NCBI GenBank assembly: GCA_903911355.1
Contig: CAIWDD010000001.1
Location: forward strand, 1-64,000
Source of the DNA: an uncultured Nodularia sp.
Lineage (GTDB): Bacteria; Cyanobacteriota; Cyanobacteriia; Cyanobacteriales; Nostocaceae
Direction of reading: 5' to 3'
DNA: 64,000 nucleotides
The position numbers and the translations under genes are program-made. Shown here one piece after another: positions 27,101-32,529 of this stretch. The notes beneath the pieces were generated by a model. It saw only the letters and a program-made list of their open reading frames with translations, searched no databases and was not told where the DNA came from. The first letter of the stretch is position 1. Every line of letters starts with the position of its first letter.

Positions 27101-27811
27101 TCATGATTCTGATATTAGTTGCAAAATCAGTTGTAGGGGAATTTTTACGTAATCTGGACGATGGTTGAGTTCATGGTGGAGTTCCTCTATTGCTTTTTCT
27201 AATAGATAGGCAAATAGCAGTAATTGTAGTTCCCTTACCAAGGGATGATCATAATTTAGATCCGGCTGATGGGAATACAAACGATGCCAATAATAAGCCT
27301 TAGCCACCGGATCCCAAGCCCAATTCGAGGTTTCAAAATCCTGGAAAATAATTCGCGCTTCTTGGTATTTTTCTGCCGTATCACTCCACACATAAAAATC
27401 TCTTTCTAGACTACCTTTTGGGGCGCGGCGTGCGCGTTGTAACCAAGGATGTTGATCCGATGTATGGTTAATAATTAACTCAATAATCACCCGGATACAC
27501 CGCTCATGGGCAGCATTCAATAGGTCTTTAAAGTCTTCTAATGTCCCATAGATGGGGTTAATACTGGTATACTCAGCAACATCATAACCATCATCTTTCA
27601 GTGGTGAGGGGAAAAAAGGTAGTAACCAAATAGCCGTAATCCCTAAATCTTGCAAGTAATCTAGTTTTTCTATTAGTCCCTGTAGGTCGCAAATACCATC
27701 ACCATTACTATCAGCAAATGCGCGAATAGGTACTTCGTAAATAATGGCATTTTTAAACCATAAGGGGTCATCTTTGATGATTAAGTCTAATCTTCTCATT
27801 TTATTTATCAA
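27101..27811 (-). pseudogene. Trehalose synthase/maltokinase (TreS–Mak) remnant, internally deleted
   Basis: A 236-codon open frame joins two distant parts of one enzyme. Residues 1–~193 are the N-terminus of a GH13 trehalose synthase (YEVPIRAFADSNGDGICDL, TAIWLLPFFPSPLKDDGYD, NHTSDQHPW, ERDFYVWSDT, PDLNYDHPLVRE). Immediately after, residues ~197–236 (AYLLEKAIEELHHELNHRPD, YVKIPLQLIL) match the extreme C-terminus of the fused maltokinase domain. The catalytic Asp/Glu/Asp of the amylase domain, the C-domain and almost all of the kinase are missing; full fusions are around 1,100 residues. The frame has stayed open across the deletion (~27230), but the product cannot be catalytic. Confidence 0.88.
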
Positions 27812-28113: not shown

Positions 28114-29331
28114 ATGGACTACAACACTCACAAACCAAAACCCAAACAGAAAAATTCTACTTTTGTTCGTCCATTACCTCAACAACCCAAAAAGTCTCAA
28201 AACACTAAATCATCCTTAAAAGATGAATTTGATCTGGAAATTCTCCAAAAAAATCCTTGGGGACAATTTTTATTATTTGTGGAAGATTTCTACAGTAAAT
28301 ACATTCCACCCAGTACAGAGGAGGAGAAAAAACGTGGAAATATATTGCAAACCGCCATTAAAACCTTCAATGAACATCATCAAGAATCTTGGAGACAAAT
28401 ACTCCATAGAATTCCTCCATCTTCCACCAAGCTGATTGATGACTTTTATTATTATCTATCTAACCGTAGAAAACTGACACCACAGGAAGTTTATCAAGAA
28501 TCTCAAGCAGCTATCCAAGGTTTGATTAATAACGCGGAATATGGATTTATACACACAGATAATAAAGATATTGGCAGAATTAGCCAGCTATCTGATGCCA
28601 TAAATTACTTTCAAAAACACCGTTCTAAGACCTATTTAGTTCTCTCTCAAATAGAAGCATATGTTCCAGAAGATGCTAAAAAATTCTTTGCAGCTTCTCA
28701 GGTCTTTCAAGGCATAATTGCATCTGGTTCTCATGAAATTCTCACGGATTTTGGTATGGCCTTGATGAAACATTTTAAAGTTACGCGCACTGCAATTAAA
28801 GACGAAACAGCTAAAAATCTTGTTTCAGGTCTCGGAGAGATTGAAAGACAATTAACAACTCAAATTAGTATTTTAGAAGCTGAAAACTTAGAACTGACTC
28901 GAAAGTTGGAGCAACTGCGTGAGCAAGGACATCAAGAAATTGTCACCCAAATTGCTCAAGAACTACAAAATGGTTCCCAACCGGCTTTAGATCAAATACA
29001 GAAAATTATCAGTTTAATACAACCTCAAATTGAAGCAAGTGGAGAAGCTCAAATTTCCTCTGATGATTCTCTGTCCATATTTATTGTCTTGCGTAATTTA
29101 ATGACAATATTCCAAAAACTAGGAATAGAAACTTACCCCAAGTCCCTCCAAGATAGTTTCACAATATCTCAACTTGACTTAGCAAAATATGCTTATGTAG
29201 GGGGAACGCCTTTTACAAATTACACAGAAATTAAACGAGTACAGTGTATTCAGAAAGGATGGAAGGTTAACGACAACATAATTACACCGGCAAAAGTACA
29301 AGAATTAACTGATAATTCCACCAATAATTAA
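28114..29331 (+). CDS. GrpE-like coiled-coil protein, partner of the NYN–Hsp70
   Basis: A 405-residue protein, not recognised as a standard family over its whole length. Residues 1–60 are basic and polar. Residues ~60–240 are mostly helical. Residues ~245–300 form a long coiled coil (ERQLTTQISILEAENLELTR, then KLEQLREQ). The last ~60 residues resemble the beta-domain of the nucleotide exchange factor GrpE (IKRVQCIQKGWKVNDNIITP, then AKVQEL, compare the V-x-x-PGW-x-x-x-x-x-I-x-P-A-x-V pattern). The gene for an unusual Hsp70 starts 30 bp downstream in the same direction, so the two are almost certainly one operon. I infer it is a dedicated exchange factor or adaptor for that Hsp70. Classic grpE is far shorter, so this is not the housekeeping gene. 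Confidence 0.75.
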   Translation: MDYNTHKPKPKQKNSTFVRPLPQQPKKSQNTKSSLKDEFDLEILQKNPWGQFLLFVEDFYSKYIPPSTEEEKKRGNILQTAIKTFNEHHQESWRQILHRIPPSSTKLIDDFYYYLSNRRKLTPQEVYQESQAAIQGLINNAEYGFIHTDNKDIGRISQLSDAINYFQKHRSKTYLVLSQIEAYVPEDAKKFFAASQVFQGIIASGSHEILTDFGMALMKHFKVTRTAIKDETAKNLVSGLGEIERQLTTQISILEAENLELTRKLEQLREQGHQEIVTQIAQELQNGSQPALDQIQKIISLIQPQIEASGEAQISSDDSLSIFIVLRNLMTIFQKLGIETYPKSLQDSFTISQLDLAKYAYVGGTPFTNYTEIKRVQCIQKGWKVNDNIITPAKVQELTDNSTNN

Positions 29332-29361
29332 AAGATTTTTATAAAAACAGGATAAAAAACC

Positions 29362-32300
29362 ATGGTAGAAAATATTGCAATCTTATTAGACCTAGACAAC
29401 ATTAAACCTGAACTTGGGGAAATTGAATCTATTTGTACCAAGTATGGTTCCATAAAAGTACGTCGTGCATTTTCCAACACTCCAGCAGTCCTCTCTGCTT
29501 ATGGTAGTCAGCTACGTAATTTAGGATATCGGTTTGAATTAACACCCGGATTGACATCTGTTCCCCAAGAAGTTGATAATTTAATTTTCCGCACATCCGA
29601 GGAGTTGATTAACAATTCCCAGGAACAAATTAATATCATTGCCGTTGTCAGCAATGATAATGATTATGCAAAATTATTTTCTTATTTAACCAGTAAACAA
29701 GTTAAAACAGTAGCTATTGGTAATAATCAACTGGGAAATAAACTTAGAGAAACAGCCACATATATTGAATTACTCCAAAACATTTTACGCCCCACATATT
29801 TAGGTATCGACTTAGGCACTACTAACACAGTCATAGCAAGAGCTAGTCAAACATTAATGCAGGAATGGAAAGCTAACGCCATTAGTATTCCGGTCAAAAA
29901 TGAGCATGAAGCTGTACAACATACAGAATTAATTCCTTCTGCTGTCAGGTATTCTCAATTAGATACTGCGAAAATAGGTAACCATGTCCGCAGCCAATAT
30001 TATGCTTTTAGAGATCAAACTATTCTGGCTTGGAAACATGATATTGGTACTCTTCAAGATGGGTTACCTTTTGAATATCAACTTACTATCGGTAATGTTA
30101 CACCAGAACAAGCCGCCGCAGAAGTTTTAAAGTTTTGTCGTCATCAATTAACCCAAAAACAAATAGATGTGAGAGGTGCAGTCATCACTCACCCAGCGTC
30201 CTATGAACCTGATGCTATTGAAGCGACCCGGAAAGCCGCTAAATTAGCAGGTTGGGAAGAAAATAACATTGTTTTGTTACCAGAACCAAAAGCTGCTTTA
30301 TATGATTTCTTATATAGACTCCGAAATGGAGAGATTTGCGCTGATTTAGATACCAGTCGTCCTTTAAATATTCTTGTCTATGATTTAGGAGGGGGGACTT
30401 TAGATACTTCATTACACAAAGTACACTGGAATAGCGATATAGCCCAGTTTTTTATTGAGGATATTTCTATTGGTTCCCGCACCAGAGTGGGAGGCGATCA
30501 AGTTGATGAAAAAATAGTTGATTATTTGTTTACTAACTATAGTAAAATAGGTAAGTTATCAGCACCTGAGCAGAAAAAATTGTGGTATGAACTCAGGATT
30601 TATGCCGAACAATTTAAGCAAGTTTGGGGCAGTAGATATTCTGATAGCCTGGATAAGGAAGAGTTTAGAATGCCGTTTGAATACGTGAGTTCTAGCTCTA
30701 GTTTTCCGATTTTCTACAGTTTGGGATATCGTCAAATGCAGGAAGCTTTAAAAGAGTTACTGTGCCCAGATATTAAACCGGAACTAATAGAAAAGTTAGA
30801 CCCAAAAACCGCTTTTAATGAATCTCCCTTTGTAGACCGTCGTGACACTTTTATCGTACCTGTTCTTGATGTCCTCCTCAAAGCTAAAGAGAAGTTGGGG
30901 GAATTACCTAAAATTAATGGCATTCTGCTTAATGGGGGGATGACATATTTCCCTTTAATTCGGGAACGCTTAGAACAGCTCTTACCTGGAATCCTCATTC
31001 TATCAGAGGGAGATCCAGACTTGGCGGTGGCTCGTGGTGCAGCACTTTATGCAGCAGGTACTGTGGGTAAATCAGAAGGAATTAACCCCACAAATATTTG
31101 GCTAGAAGTTACAGATTGTAATACTCAAGAATCAAAATTAGAGTTGTTAGTTGCTCACGGTCAAAAGTATCCTTATCGCACTACCTTGGCGGGATTTCGT
31201 TTACCAGCATTTGAAGACGACGGTTTGATTGGTTTTAAAGCTTGGGTGGGTATGGGTTCCCAAATTAATCAAAATACTACCTTACAACGGACTCGCTACG
31301 TTAATACCGATGAAATTCGCGCTGCTGATATTCAACCAGGAGATTATTTAAATCTGGAAGTAGAATATACCTTTGATGAGCGATTATTACTGACACTGGT
31401 ACATCGCGATCGCCCAGATACTCGTTTCCGCTTAGAAGTTTCCCCCCAAAGAATAATACCGACAATTAGCAATGTCGAAAAAACAGTTAATCAAAAAACA
31501 GTTAATAACACGGCCACAGATTTAATTCCTAAAATTAGCCGTTCCCGTCCAGGTAAAGAAATTAATCCCGATATTGAGGTGGAATTTTCGGCCTGGGGGA
31601 GGGTCGCATTTAGTCTGGCTCAAAATTGGCAAAATGCTAGTGTTCAAACCCAAAGACGAAATCTAGAAAATCAGACTTGTCAGGGTAAAAATCGTTTATC
31701 TATTATTCGCAGTTTATTACAGTGGTTGGAAACACAGAGTAATGTTAAACCTGATTTACAACAAAGCAGAAAAATTGTAGCCGTAATGGCTTTATCTAAT
31801 ATTATCCAAAGTTTACCTTCTGATAGCTCTGACTTCCAAGTCAGAGAACTAGAACAGAGGTATCACAACTGGATTTTACGCCAATTTCAAGCTGGTTTAT
31901 CCAGATATAACCACATACATGAATTACAAACAGCCATTTCCCTGGCTCCGGGTAAAATGCTATGGTCAGATTTTAGCGAGTTAATTTACCAAGAGTTTAC
32001 AGTCATCTCACACCTAGCACGTTCCGTTAATTTACTTAACTCATTTGGTTTTTGTGCTGAACCTTCTGTACGTAATATTACGCGCTTGCGTTCGATTATC
32101 CAAGGCAGTCAACATTTAGCTGTGCGCCAAAAAGCCTTCTGGGCTTTAGCGAGAATCATTAGCCCTGGTCAACCCCAGGAATGGCGAGCCAATCTCAATG
32201 ATGTGGAAAAAGTAGCATTATTTGTTTTAGAGCAACTTAAACATCAAATTAGTGAACCTCAAATTGCTTTAGATGCTTTAGGTTGTCTGGGTCAATGTAT

Positions 32301-32529
32301 TGGTTGGCATATTACAGGAAATCTACTTCATGAACGAATTGTCAATGACATTTTATCTCTGGCAAAGATTTATCTGCCTTGTCAAGGTAGAATGATTAAT
32401 TTCCCGGGTATCTCCCAACAGTTTGACCGCAAGTTAGAGCTAATAGAAAGGGCTTTTCATCTTGATACTGCTACTATTCAAGAAAAAGAAGACATCAGAA
32501 CTTGGTTTTTGCAAACTGTCAATGGTTAA
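29362..32529 (+). CDS. NYN (PIN-like) ribonuclease domain–Hsp70 fusion protein
   Basis: A 1,055-residue fusion. Residues 1–~140 are a NYN/DUF88-like domain. AILLDLDNI has acidic residues D10 and D12, and IIAVVSNDNDYAKLF has D~98–100; these are the metal-binding acids of PIN/NYN ribonucleases, followed by VKTVAIG. Residues ~147–570 form a complete Hsp70 ATPase with all three signature loops: LGIDLGTTNTV (phosphate 1), ILVYDLGGGTLDTSL (phosphate 2) and NGILLNGGMTYFPLIRERL (adenosine). A beta-rich stretch to ~700 replaces or diverges from the classic substrate domain. Residues ~740–1,055 are alpha-helical, perhaps repeat-like. There is no EEVD-like tail. It is in an operon with the GrpE-like protein upstream. 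ATP-gated RNA cleavage, or RNA handling coupled to misfolded proteins, is an inference. Confidence 0.88.
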   Translation: MVENIAILLDLDNIKPELGEIESICTKYGSIKVRRAFSNTPAVLSAYGSQLRNLGYRFELTPGLTSVPQEVDNLIFRTSEELINNSQEQINIIAVVSNDNDYAKLFSYLTSKQVKTVAIGNNQLGNKLRETATYIELLQNILRPTYLGIDLGTTNTVIARASQTLMQEWKANAISIPVKNEHEAVQHTELIPSAVRYSQLDTAKIGNHVRSQYYAFRDQTILAWKHDIGTLQDGLPFEYQLTIGNVTPEQAAAEVLKFCRHQLTQKQIDVRGAVITHPASYEPDAIEATRKAAKLAGWEENNIVLLPEPKAALYDFLYRLRNGEICADLDTSRPLNILVYDLGGGTLDTSLHKVHWNSDIAQFFIEDISIGSRTRVGGDQVDEKIVDYLFTNYSKIGKLSAPEQKKLWYELRIYAEQFKQVWGSRYSDSLDKEEFRMPFEYVSSSSSFPIFYSLGYRQMQEALKELLCPDIKPELIEKLDPKTAFNESPFVDRRDTFIVPVLDVLLKAKEKLGELPKINGILLNGGMTYFPLIRERLEQLLPGILILSEGDPDLAVARGAALYAAGTVGKSEGINPTNIWLEVTDCNTQESKLELLVAHGQKYPYRTTLAGFRLPAFEDDGLIGFKAWVGMGSQINQNTTLQRTRYVNTDEIRAADIQPGDYLNLEVEYTFDERLLLTLVHRDRPDTRFRLEVSPQRIIPTISNVEKTVNQKTVNNTATDLIPKISRSRPGKEINPDIEVEFSAWGRVAFSLAQNWQNASVQTQRRNLENQTCQGKNRLSIIRSLLQWLETQSNVKPDLQQSRKIVAVMALSNIIQSLPSDSSDFQVRELEQRYHNWILRQFQAGLSRYNHIHELQTAISLAPGKMLWSDFSELIYQEFTVISHLARSVNLLNSFGFCAEPSVRNITRLRSIIQGSQHLAVRQKAFWALARIISPGQPQEWRANLNDVEKVALFVLEQLKHQISEPQIALDALGCLGQCIGWHITGNLLHERIVNDILSLAKIYLPCQGRMINFPGISQQFDRKLELIERAFHLDTATIQEKEDIRTWFLQTVNG

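What the first reader, a model, noticed from the sequence alone, without database searches (positions are those of the whole stretch)
28114..32529. NYN nuclease–Hsp70 fusion in an operon with a GrpE-like protein
One protein joins a NYN/PIN-like domain with its acidic residues (D10, D12, SNDND near 98) to a full Hsp70 ATPase with all three nucleotide loops and a non-classical helical C-terminus. The gene just upstream, 30 bp away, encodes a 405-residue coiled-coil protein with a GrpE-like end. I know Hsp70 and NYN families separately; a chaperone-gated ribonuclease with its own exchange factor would be a new type of RNA/protein quality-control or defence module. The functional reading is inference; the domain calls are from motifs.
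Basis: partly seen in the sequence, partly recalled or inferred. Interest (0 to 1): 0.82.

Follow-up and report, generated by a model that had tools for sequence, protein, structure and literature searches.

The report
RNase-Hsp70 fusion with own exchange factor
Some cyanobacteria carry a patchy two-gene unit in which a domain of an RNA-cutting family is built into an Hsp70-type ATP-driven chaperone and, in every copy found here, is accompanied by its own GrpE-like exchange factor, which suggests an RNA-cutting machine switched by a chaperone cycle.

Summary
In an Anabaenopsis-like cyanobacterium, window 29362-32529 encodes one 1055-residue protein: NYN domain (best solved match MARF1 NYN, Z 18.0), Hsp70 ATPase plus SBD-beta-like part, and a HEAT/armadillo-like C-terminus in place of the Hsp70 lid. 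The gene 30 bp upstream encodes a 405-residue GrpE-family protein with an extra N-terminal helical domain. Homologues, recruited mainly by the C-terminal region, make 21 distinct loci; 21 of 21 carry the fusion and the GrpE-like gene directly upstream (3 with broken frames). NYN acidic residues and Hsp70 ATPase residues are invariant; the HEAT part evolves fastest. The unit is patchy (17 of 388 Cyanobacteriales genomes), has mostly different neighbours, and is absent between the same flanks in 4 sister species. The gene order beta-CASP hydrolase - GrpE-like - Hsp70 - HEAT, as separate genes, occurs on a Priestia and a Klebsiella plasmid, suggesting a wider design with exchangeable nucleases. 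Best reading: an RNase gated by a dedicated Hsp70/GrpE ATP cycle, probably an accessory stress or defence module. RNase activity, gating, target and role are inferred; enrichment of defence genes nearby was not shown.

The parts
28114..29331 (+). GrpE-like gene (405 aa), dedicated exchange-factor candidate
   Evidence: Pfam GrpE 31.8 bits over cut-off 25.8; the nine best Foldseek hits are GrpEs, best E 6.6e-4; directly upstream of the fusion in 21 of 21 loci
28216..28773 (+). extra N-terminal helical domain of the GrpE-like protein (residues 35-220), outside the GrpE match
   Evidence: model, block pLDDT 73-97
28786..29304 (+). GrpE core: long helix, two helices, beta domain (residues 225-397)
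   Evidence: secondary structure; 3a6m_A Z 7.2 over 165 residues, model 210-402
29332..29361 (+). 30-bp gap with AGGA at 29349-29352
29362..32529 (+). NYN-Hsp70-HEAT fusion gene (1055 aa)
29362..29781 (+). NYN (PIN-like) domain, residues 1-140; D10, D12, D72, D99
   Evidence: PF01936 E 5.9e-5, 10 of 10 homologues, MARF1 NYN Z 18.0, conservation
29800..31071 (+). Hsp70 nucleotide-binding domain, residues 147-570
   Evidence: PF00012 92.5 bits; D150, T153, K225, E308, D341, T346, D348 20 of 20
31084..31461 (+). SBD-beta-like region, residues 575-700, without the LLLD linker
   Evidence: first 34 Foldseek rows, all Hsp70 superfamily, span 466-723 alignment columns, i.e. more than the ATPase domain; alignment to own DnaKs
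31564..32526 (+). helical HEAT/armadillo-like C-terminal domain, residues 735-1055, in place of the Hsp70 lid
   Evidence: block pLDDT mostly 82-95; importin-beta Z 16.4 and many HEAT/ARM chains

Best explanation
The two genes make a dedicated, mobile chaperone-nuclease machine. SHOWN (sequence, models, comparison): one polypeptide carries a conserved NYN active site, a conserved Hsp70 ATPase, an SBD-beta-like part and a HEAT-like arm; a GrpE-family protein is encoded directly upstream in every locus found. INFERRED: the HEAT arm and SBD-beta-like part bind a protein or ribonucleoprotein target (foreign or misfolded protein, stalled ribosome); ATP hydrolysis by the Hsp70 part fixes the complex and brings or exposes the NYN domain to nearby RNA, which it cuts; the GrpE-like protein, through its beta domain, drives ADP release and so resets the machine, while its extra N-terminal domain adds specificity. 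Most likely an accessory stress/defence function rather than core metabolism.
For: Pfam domains; NYN fold match to MARF1 NYN domains, Z 17-18; GrpE-fold match; 21 of 21 loci with both genes adjacent; NYN residues D72, S97, N98, D99, N100 20 of 20, D10 and D12 in the 19 whose N-terminus is in frame; ATPase residues 20 of 20; NYN the best and HEAT the least conserved part across the deep split, 61% vs 34%; fusion and GrpE-like distances correlate beyond rpoB, partial r 0.90 in 17 genomes; patchy, 17 of 388 genomes, 3 of them with broken frames; absent between the same two flanks in 4 of 7 sister genomes, the other 3 showing one flank only; own genome keeps other GrpE-family and DnaK genes; plasmid counterpart with a beta-CASP hydrolase as separate gene.
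Against: No biochemical test. Model confidence in the ATPase domain is low (block means 27-66 for residues 141-380), so the Hsp70 call rests mainly on sequence. J-domain contact residues and the LLLD linker are not kept (alignment; residue roles recalled), so coupling of ATPase and target binding may differ from DnaK. 2 of 10 GrpE-like homologues do not match Pfam GrpE even at E 0.1. No PADLOC match. Flanking defence-type genes not clearly above background. The family groups of the rpoB tree are recovered in both gene trees, so much of the history may be vertical with loss rather than transfer.
Confidence: 0.5

Rival explanations
1. Housekeeping-type RNA/protein quality control: the Hsp70 part recognises unfolded or stalled nascent chains and the NYN domain clears the associated mRNA, an optional ribosome-rescue factor with no role in defence.
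For: Hsp70 ATPase residues and GrpE partner kept; family groups agree with rpoB, as for a vertically kept gene; no defence-model match.
Against: Only 17 of 388 Cyanobacteriales genomes carry it; absent at the same site in close sister species; frames broken in two of three Hormoscilla and in Geminocystis; no constant third gene beside it.
Confidence: 0.25
2. The Hsp70 part is a scaffold or RNA-binding platform that hardly cycles, as proposed for CnuD of CoCoNuTs; the NYN domain is constitutively active and the GrpE-like protein is structural.
For: Same order Hsp70 NBD/SBD then HEAT-like helices as CnuD (PMC11090510); LLLD linker and SBD-alpha lid missing.
Against: CoCoNuT Hsp70s are said to have degenerate Walker A-like motifs (passage); here the listed ATPase residues are invariant 20 of 20 and a GrpE-family partner is kept 21 of 21.
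Confidence: 0.15
3. Toxin-antidote pair: the NYN-Hsp70 protein is a toxin and the upstream GrpE-like protein its antidote.
For: Two genes, small patchy unit, upstream partner present 21 of 21.
Against: The partner is a GrpE-family protein, a natural co-chaperone; both proteins are far larger than usual toxin-antitoxin pairs (recalled).
Confidence: 0.07

Closest known systems
CoCoNuT Type III (CnuD/CnuCD: Hsp70 NBD/SBD + HEAT-like repeats, with HEPN RNases in some types; PMC11090510, passages and section 9 part 1 seen)
   Same: Hsp70 NBD/SBD followed by HEAT-like helices, linked to RNases, predicted RNA targeting
   Different: Here the nuclease domain (NYN) is fused to the Hsp70 itself, there is no constant third gene, ATPase residues are kept, and there is a GrpE-family partner; the paper's main text has no hit for GrpE or NYN. 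No sequence comparison with CnuD was made
GAP1-N2 GTPase-centred conflict systems with HSP70 + GrpE (PMC7159879, passages seen)
   Same: A dedicated HSP70 next to its own GrpE in a predicted conflict locus
   Different: No constant GTPase, FNIII or DnaJ neighbour here; nuclease fused to the Hsp70; the paper's main text has no hit for NYN
MARF1-type NYN domains
   Same: Fold: 5yaa Z 18.0, 6fdl Z 17.1; acidic residues kept in this family
   Different: 14% identity; fused to Hsp70
Canonical DnaK-GrpE pair
   Same: Hsp70 ATPase motifs and GrpE fold; 7 of the 9 GrpE rows come from GrpE-Hsp70 complexes
   Different: N-terminal NYN, HEAT instead of SBD-alpha lid, no LLLD linker, J-domain contacts not kept, GrpE with extra N-terminal domain
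Plasmid operon MBL/beta-CASP - GrpE-like - Hsp70 - HEAT (Priestia pNCT2_2, Klebsiella pNY3A; met here as L072 and L190)
   Same: Same four functions; the Priestia Hsp70 aligns at E 1.8e-40, the GrpE-like C-termini at pairwise E 4.1e-5, probability 70
   Different: Separate genes; nuclease of another fold; HEAT protein not detectably homologous
DnaK1-DnaJ3-GrpE system of Nostoc punctiforme (PMC9239167, passages seen)
   Same: Specialised cyanobacterial Hsp70 system
   Different: No nuclease mentioned (0 hits for nuclease or NYN); uses the single GrpE and a DnaJ; role in pilus/polysaccharide coupling

Membership tests
NYN domain (PF01936) | significant profile match | tested here: met
   10 of 10 homologues at E <= 0.1, best 2e-8; the window protein alone 24.1 bits, E 5.9e-5, just under the cut-off of 24.2
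NYN domain (PF01936) | PIN-like alpha/beta fold | tested here: met
   5yaa_A Z 18.0, rmsd 2.9, 141 aligned, model 1-144
NYN domain (PF01936) | conserved acidic active site | tested here: met
   D72 and D99 20 of 20; D10, D12 in the 19 with in-frame N-terminus
NYN domain (PF01936) | RNase activity | not testable with these tools
   needs purified protein
Hsp70 (PF00012) | profile match and ATPase motifs | tested here: met
   92.5 bits vs 20.6; motif residues 20 of 20
Hsp70 (PF00012) | classical SBD-alpha lid and LLLD interdomain linker (of DnaK-type Hsp70) | tested here: not met
   HEAT-like helices instead; linker absent in alignment to own DnaKs. A divergent Hsp70-family protein, not a DnaK
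GrpE (PF01025) | profile match | tested here: met
   31.8 bits vs 25.8; 8 of 10 homologues at E <= 0.1, 2 not
GrpE (PF01025) | long helix, helical bundle and beta domain | tested here: met
   nine best hits GrpE, best E 6.6e-4; 3a6m first, Z 7.2, modest
GrpE (PF01025) | nucleotide exchange on its Hsp70 | not testable with these tools
   needs ADP-release assay
CoCoNuT | a constant McrB-like GTPase / McrC-like partner gene | tested here: not met
   by blastp clustering (E 1e-6, half the shorter length) no flanking family beside the two genes occurs in more than 6 of 21 loci; McrB/McrC not searched by model, and some loci have short flanks
GAP1-N2 / HSP70 / GrpE conflict system | linked GAP1-N2 GTPase | tested here: inconclusive
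   no constant third gene in 21 loci, but the GTPase was not searched by model
Known anti-phage defence systems (PADLOC-DB 2.0.0) | match to a system's model | tested here: not met
   0 families for both proteins at E <= 1

The most novel reading that the evidence does not exclude
A new class of effector-swapping immune or stress machines: a dedicated Hsp70 with HEAT arm and its own GrpE-like exchange factor converts recognition of foreign or damaged protein into RNA cleavage, with the nuclease fused (NYN, Cyanobacteria) or encoded separately (beta-CASP, on a Bacillota and a Pseudomonadota plasmid).
Probability: 0.33. Interest if true: 0.86.

Novelty: new variant of a known kind. Interest (0 to 1): 0.7.

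Why it matters
No paper found in the searches made here describes an RNase-family domain built into an Hsp70, or a nuclease with its own GrpE. If the ATP cycle controls RNA cutting, it would be a direct molecular link between protein-state sensing and RNA destruction, testable with two proteins. The plasmid counterpart with another nuclease suggests a general design and would extend the Hsp70-containing predicted conflict systems.

Tried and rejected
Homologues lacking the NYN part: C-terminal searches gave 10 of 386 and 18 of 388 genomes, each count including the window's own genome and one decayed piece in G024 (55-66 residues matched, with stops) that I left out of the 21. In one search nothing lay between E 3.4e-15 (that piece) and 8.3e-157, so the family looks discrete and no unfused member appeared. 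Limits: at most 3 or 4 candidates per genome were scored; only Cyanobacteria could be searched this way; the one scan over all species used two peptide patterns and would miss distant members. The NYN profile found, besides the 9 fusions, 12 weak matches at E 5.6e-5 to 1e-3. At E <= 1 Pfam gave the fusion only HSP70, MreB_Mbl, NYN and a sub-threshold HEAT_EZ.

Viral contigs, phages, plasmids: no full-length relative (the viral scans are pattern-based).

Defence-island idea: PADLOC on 127 flanking ORFs of 18 loci gave 177 families at 1e-10; 126 background ORFs from 18 arbitrary regions of ten of the same genomes gave 119. The 25 listed are mainly ATPase-type models in the flanks and PD-T4-6 (kinases, recalled) in the background. 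The sets were not matched (42,487 vs 36,252 aa) and the tool counts families, not proteins. Of 10 flanking proteins scanned singly, 2 matched at 1e-15: an AAA ATPase like HEC-01A in L051 and a mad3-like one in L058; in L051 a phosphoglycerate kinase lies between it and the unit. Inconclusive.

Free horizontal transfer: the family groups of the rpoB tree are recovered in both gene trees; within families both genes place G049 with G095/G170 against a supported rpoB branch, and G498 with G131/G141 against a moderately supported one (85/90).

Sequence search of the PDB with the NYN part found nothing meaningful; the fold comparison did. Promoter scan no better than shuffles: 15 found, mean 16.1. 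The beta-CASP operon's GrpE-like profile found 0 of 373 cyanobacteria, without a positive control. The Priestia HEAT protein is not detectably homologous to the C-terminal domain. HspBP1, an armadillo Hsp70 exchange factor, is among the fold matches (Z 14.1-14.4) but within the usual range for helical repeats, so I draw nothing from it.
Full report
WHAT IS THERE. The window lies in a 3.97-Mb assembly, G000. Its only same-genus genome, G001, is evidently Anabaenopsis elenkinii, since the homologue in that named record is identical. Two ORFs follow each other on the + strand, 28114-29331 (405 aa) and 29362-32529 (1055 aa), 30 bp apart, with AGGA 9 nt before the second ATG. Pfam gives GrpE for the first (31.8 bits, cut-off 25.8, residues 242-396) and HSP70 (92.5 bits) plus NYN (24.1 bits, cut-off 24.2, E 5.9e-5) for the second.

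FOLDS. A model of the fusion from 11 sequences (mean pLDDT 68.7) is mostly good for residues 1-140 (block means 77-91, two loops at 52-55) and for 720-1055, and poor for much of the ATPase domain (block means 27-66 for 141-380). Residues 1-144 align to the NYN domain of mouse MARF1 with Z 18.0 (rmsd 2.9, 141 residues) and human MARF1 with Z 17.1; residues 733-1046 align to HEAT/armadillo proteins (importin beta Z 16.4), where high Z is common for helical repeats. Foldseek's 50 listed hits are all of the Hsp70 superfamily, the first a DnaK lacking SBD-alpha (E 9.3e-11); the first 34 span 466-723 columns, more than the ATPase domain, the rest the ATPase domain alone; TM-scores are low (0.12-0.18 by query length). 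The GrpE-like model (mean pLDDT 82.9, pTM 0.57) has a helical domain at 35-220, a helix 225-285, two helices and a beta domain 338-397. Its nine best Foldseek hits are GrpEs (best E 6.6e-4, the only one under 0.001), seven of them chains from GrpE-Hsp70 complexes; GrpE of Thermus ranks first in the second look, Z 7.2 over 165 residues, which is modest.

FAMILY. I recruited homologues mainly by the C-terminal region (residues 421-1055 or 575-1055), so that neither NYN nor GrpE was selected for: 10 of 386 genomes of the phylum, 18 of 388 of the order, and 12 loci in a scan of species genomes; each genome count includes the window's own genome and one decayed piece in G024, which was dropped. Duplicates removed, these make 21 distinct loci including the window. 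All 21 have NYN, Hsp70 and C-terminal sequence, and all 21 have the GrpE-like gene directly upstream on the same strand. Frames of the fusion are broken in 3 of 21: Geminocystis (C-terminus) and two of three Hormoscilla. Named hosts: Anabaenopsis, Anabaena, Dolichospermum, Cuspidothrix, Nostoc, a Nostocales MAG, Scytonematopsis, Geminocystis, Hormoscilla. With the NYN profile, 9 fusions match at E below 1e-72 and the next match in 386 genomes is 5.6e-5: in this sample the NYN subfamily was seen only fused.

CONSERVATION. In 20 aligned fusions (the most broken one, G473, left out) D72, S97, N98, D99, N100 are 20 of 20; D10 and D12 are kept in the 19 whose N-terminus is in frame (the exception is the frame-broken G515); D101 is D in 15 and G in 5. 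ATPase residues D150, T153, K225, E308, D341, G343-G345, T346, D348 are 20 of 20. Their equivalence to DnaK D8, T11, K70, E171, D194, T199 and D201 follows from the alignment to the genome's own DnaKs; the E. coli numbers and roles are recalled. The LLLD linker and the R-x-x-N-E-P-T motif of J-domain contact (recalled) are not kept. Mean identity between the Nostocaceae set and the others is 60.9% for NYN, 54.5% ATPase, 53.0% SBD-beta-like, 34.3% HEAT. The nuclease is thus the most and the arm the least constrained part, as expected if the arm recognises a changing target (inference).

SPREAD. Flanks differ in most genomes (the two Anabaenopsis and the three Hormoscilla share theirs); beyond the two genes no family occurs in more than 6 of 21 loci, three of these being Hormoscilla. 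In one genus the unit sits beside argS. Of 7 sister genomes without the unit, 4 show both flanks with no unit between them, in one case 345 bp instead of about 6.4 kb; the other 3 show one flank only. The trees of the two genes are alike and recover the family groups of rpoB; two within-family conflicts with rpoB are shared by both genes, one against a well supported and one against a moderately supported rpoB branch. Distances of the two proteins correlate beyond rpoB (partial r 0.90, permutation p 0.0002, 17 genomes), as expected for linked genes inherited together. So: an old unit, often lost and sometimes moved.

A COUNTERPART. The best plasmid hit of the fusion is an Hsp70 on Priestia megaterium pNCT2_2. 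Its operon reads MBL/beta-CASP hydrolase with RMMBL - 476-aa protein - Hsp70 - HEAT protein. Klebsiella grimontii pNY3A has the same order, with integrase and HTH genes upstream and the Hsp70 annotated in two pieces. The Priestia Hsp70 aligns to our family at E 1.8e-40. The 476-aa and 527-aa proteins have no Pfam match, but about their last 140 residues align to our GrpE-like family (pairwise E 4.1e-5, probability 70) almost to the same end. By tblastn at 1e-3 only these 2 of 72,556 plasmid records hold the 476-aa-type and HEAT proteins. The same four functions with a different nuclease argue that Hsp70 + GrpE-like + HEAT is a core to which nucleases are attached (inference from two loci plus one family; the HEAT parts are not detectably homologous).

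MECHANISM. Most likely (0.5) an RNase gated by a dedicated Hsp70/GrpE cycle. Shown: anatomy, conservation, co-occurrence. Inferred: RNA cutting, ATP gating, exchange by the GrpE-like protein, target, biological role. Between defence and quality control I lean to an accessory, defence-like role because of patchiness, mobility and the fast-changing arm; direct support is missing.

LITERATURE. Searches for NYN with Hsp70/DnaK/GrpE/chaperone and for Hsp70 or DnaK with nuclease/defence/HEAT/GrpE showed no description of such a fusion in the held open-access library; subscription papers and most preprints are not covered, and several listed papers (among them PMC4287336 and PMC10226603) were not opened. 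Closest are PMC7159879 (passages) and PMC11090510 (passages and section 9 part 1). Passages of PMC8195603, PMC3710099, PMC12169576, PMC11019930 and PMC9239167 were also seen.

Noticed in passing
L072:4618-12874 (Priestia megaterium pNCT2_2) and L190:4897-13887 (Klebsiella grimontii pNY3A): Conserved plasmid operon: beta-CASP metallo-hydrolase, GrpE-like protein, Hsp70, HEAT protein and two small downstream genes; an integrase gene lies upstream in Klebsiella. PADLOC on 10 of its proteins gave only weak matches, best E 8.9e-8 (Priestia Hsp70 to PDC-M61B).
   Followed up: partly
27101-27811: A 236-aa alpha-amylase-type ORF on the minus strand appears to be the remnant of a 1133-aa ORF (alpha-amylase plus maltokinase cap domains) found at the same place in Anabaenopsis elenkinii (L050:11193-14594).
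   Followed up: partly
L071:4397-6247: In one Hormoscilla the GrpE-like gene is 616 aa with a second, N-terminal copy of its front half.
   Followed up: no
L053:10114-10299 and L164:11060-11248: The DNA between the GrpE-like and fusion genes in L053 recurs, inverted and about 84% alike, in the otherwise empty site of a sister species; perhaps a small dispersed repeat.
   Followed up: no
G000 contigs C41, C77 and C1:176272-176685: The genome has three further GrpE-family matches besides the one in the window (157, 65 and 39 bits), two of them divergent.
   Followed up: no
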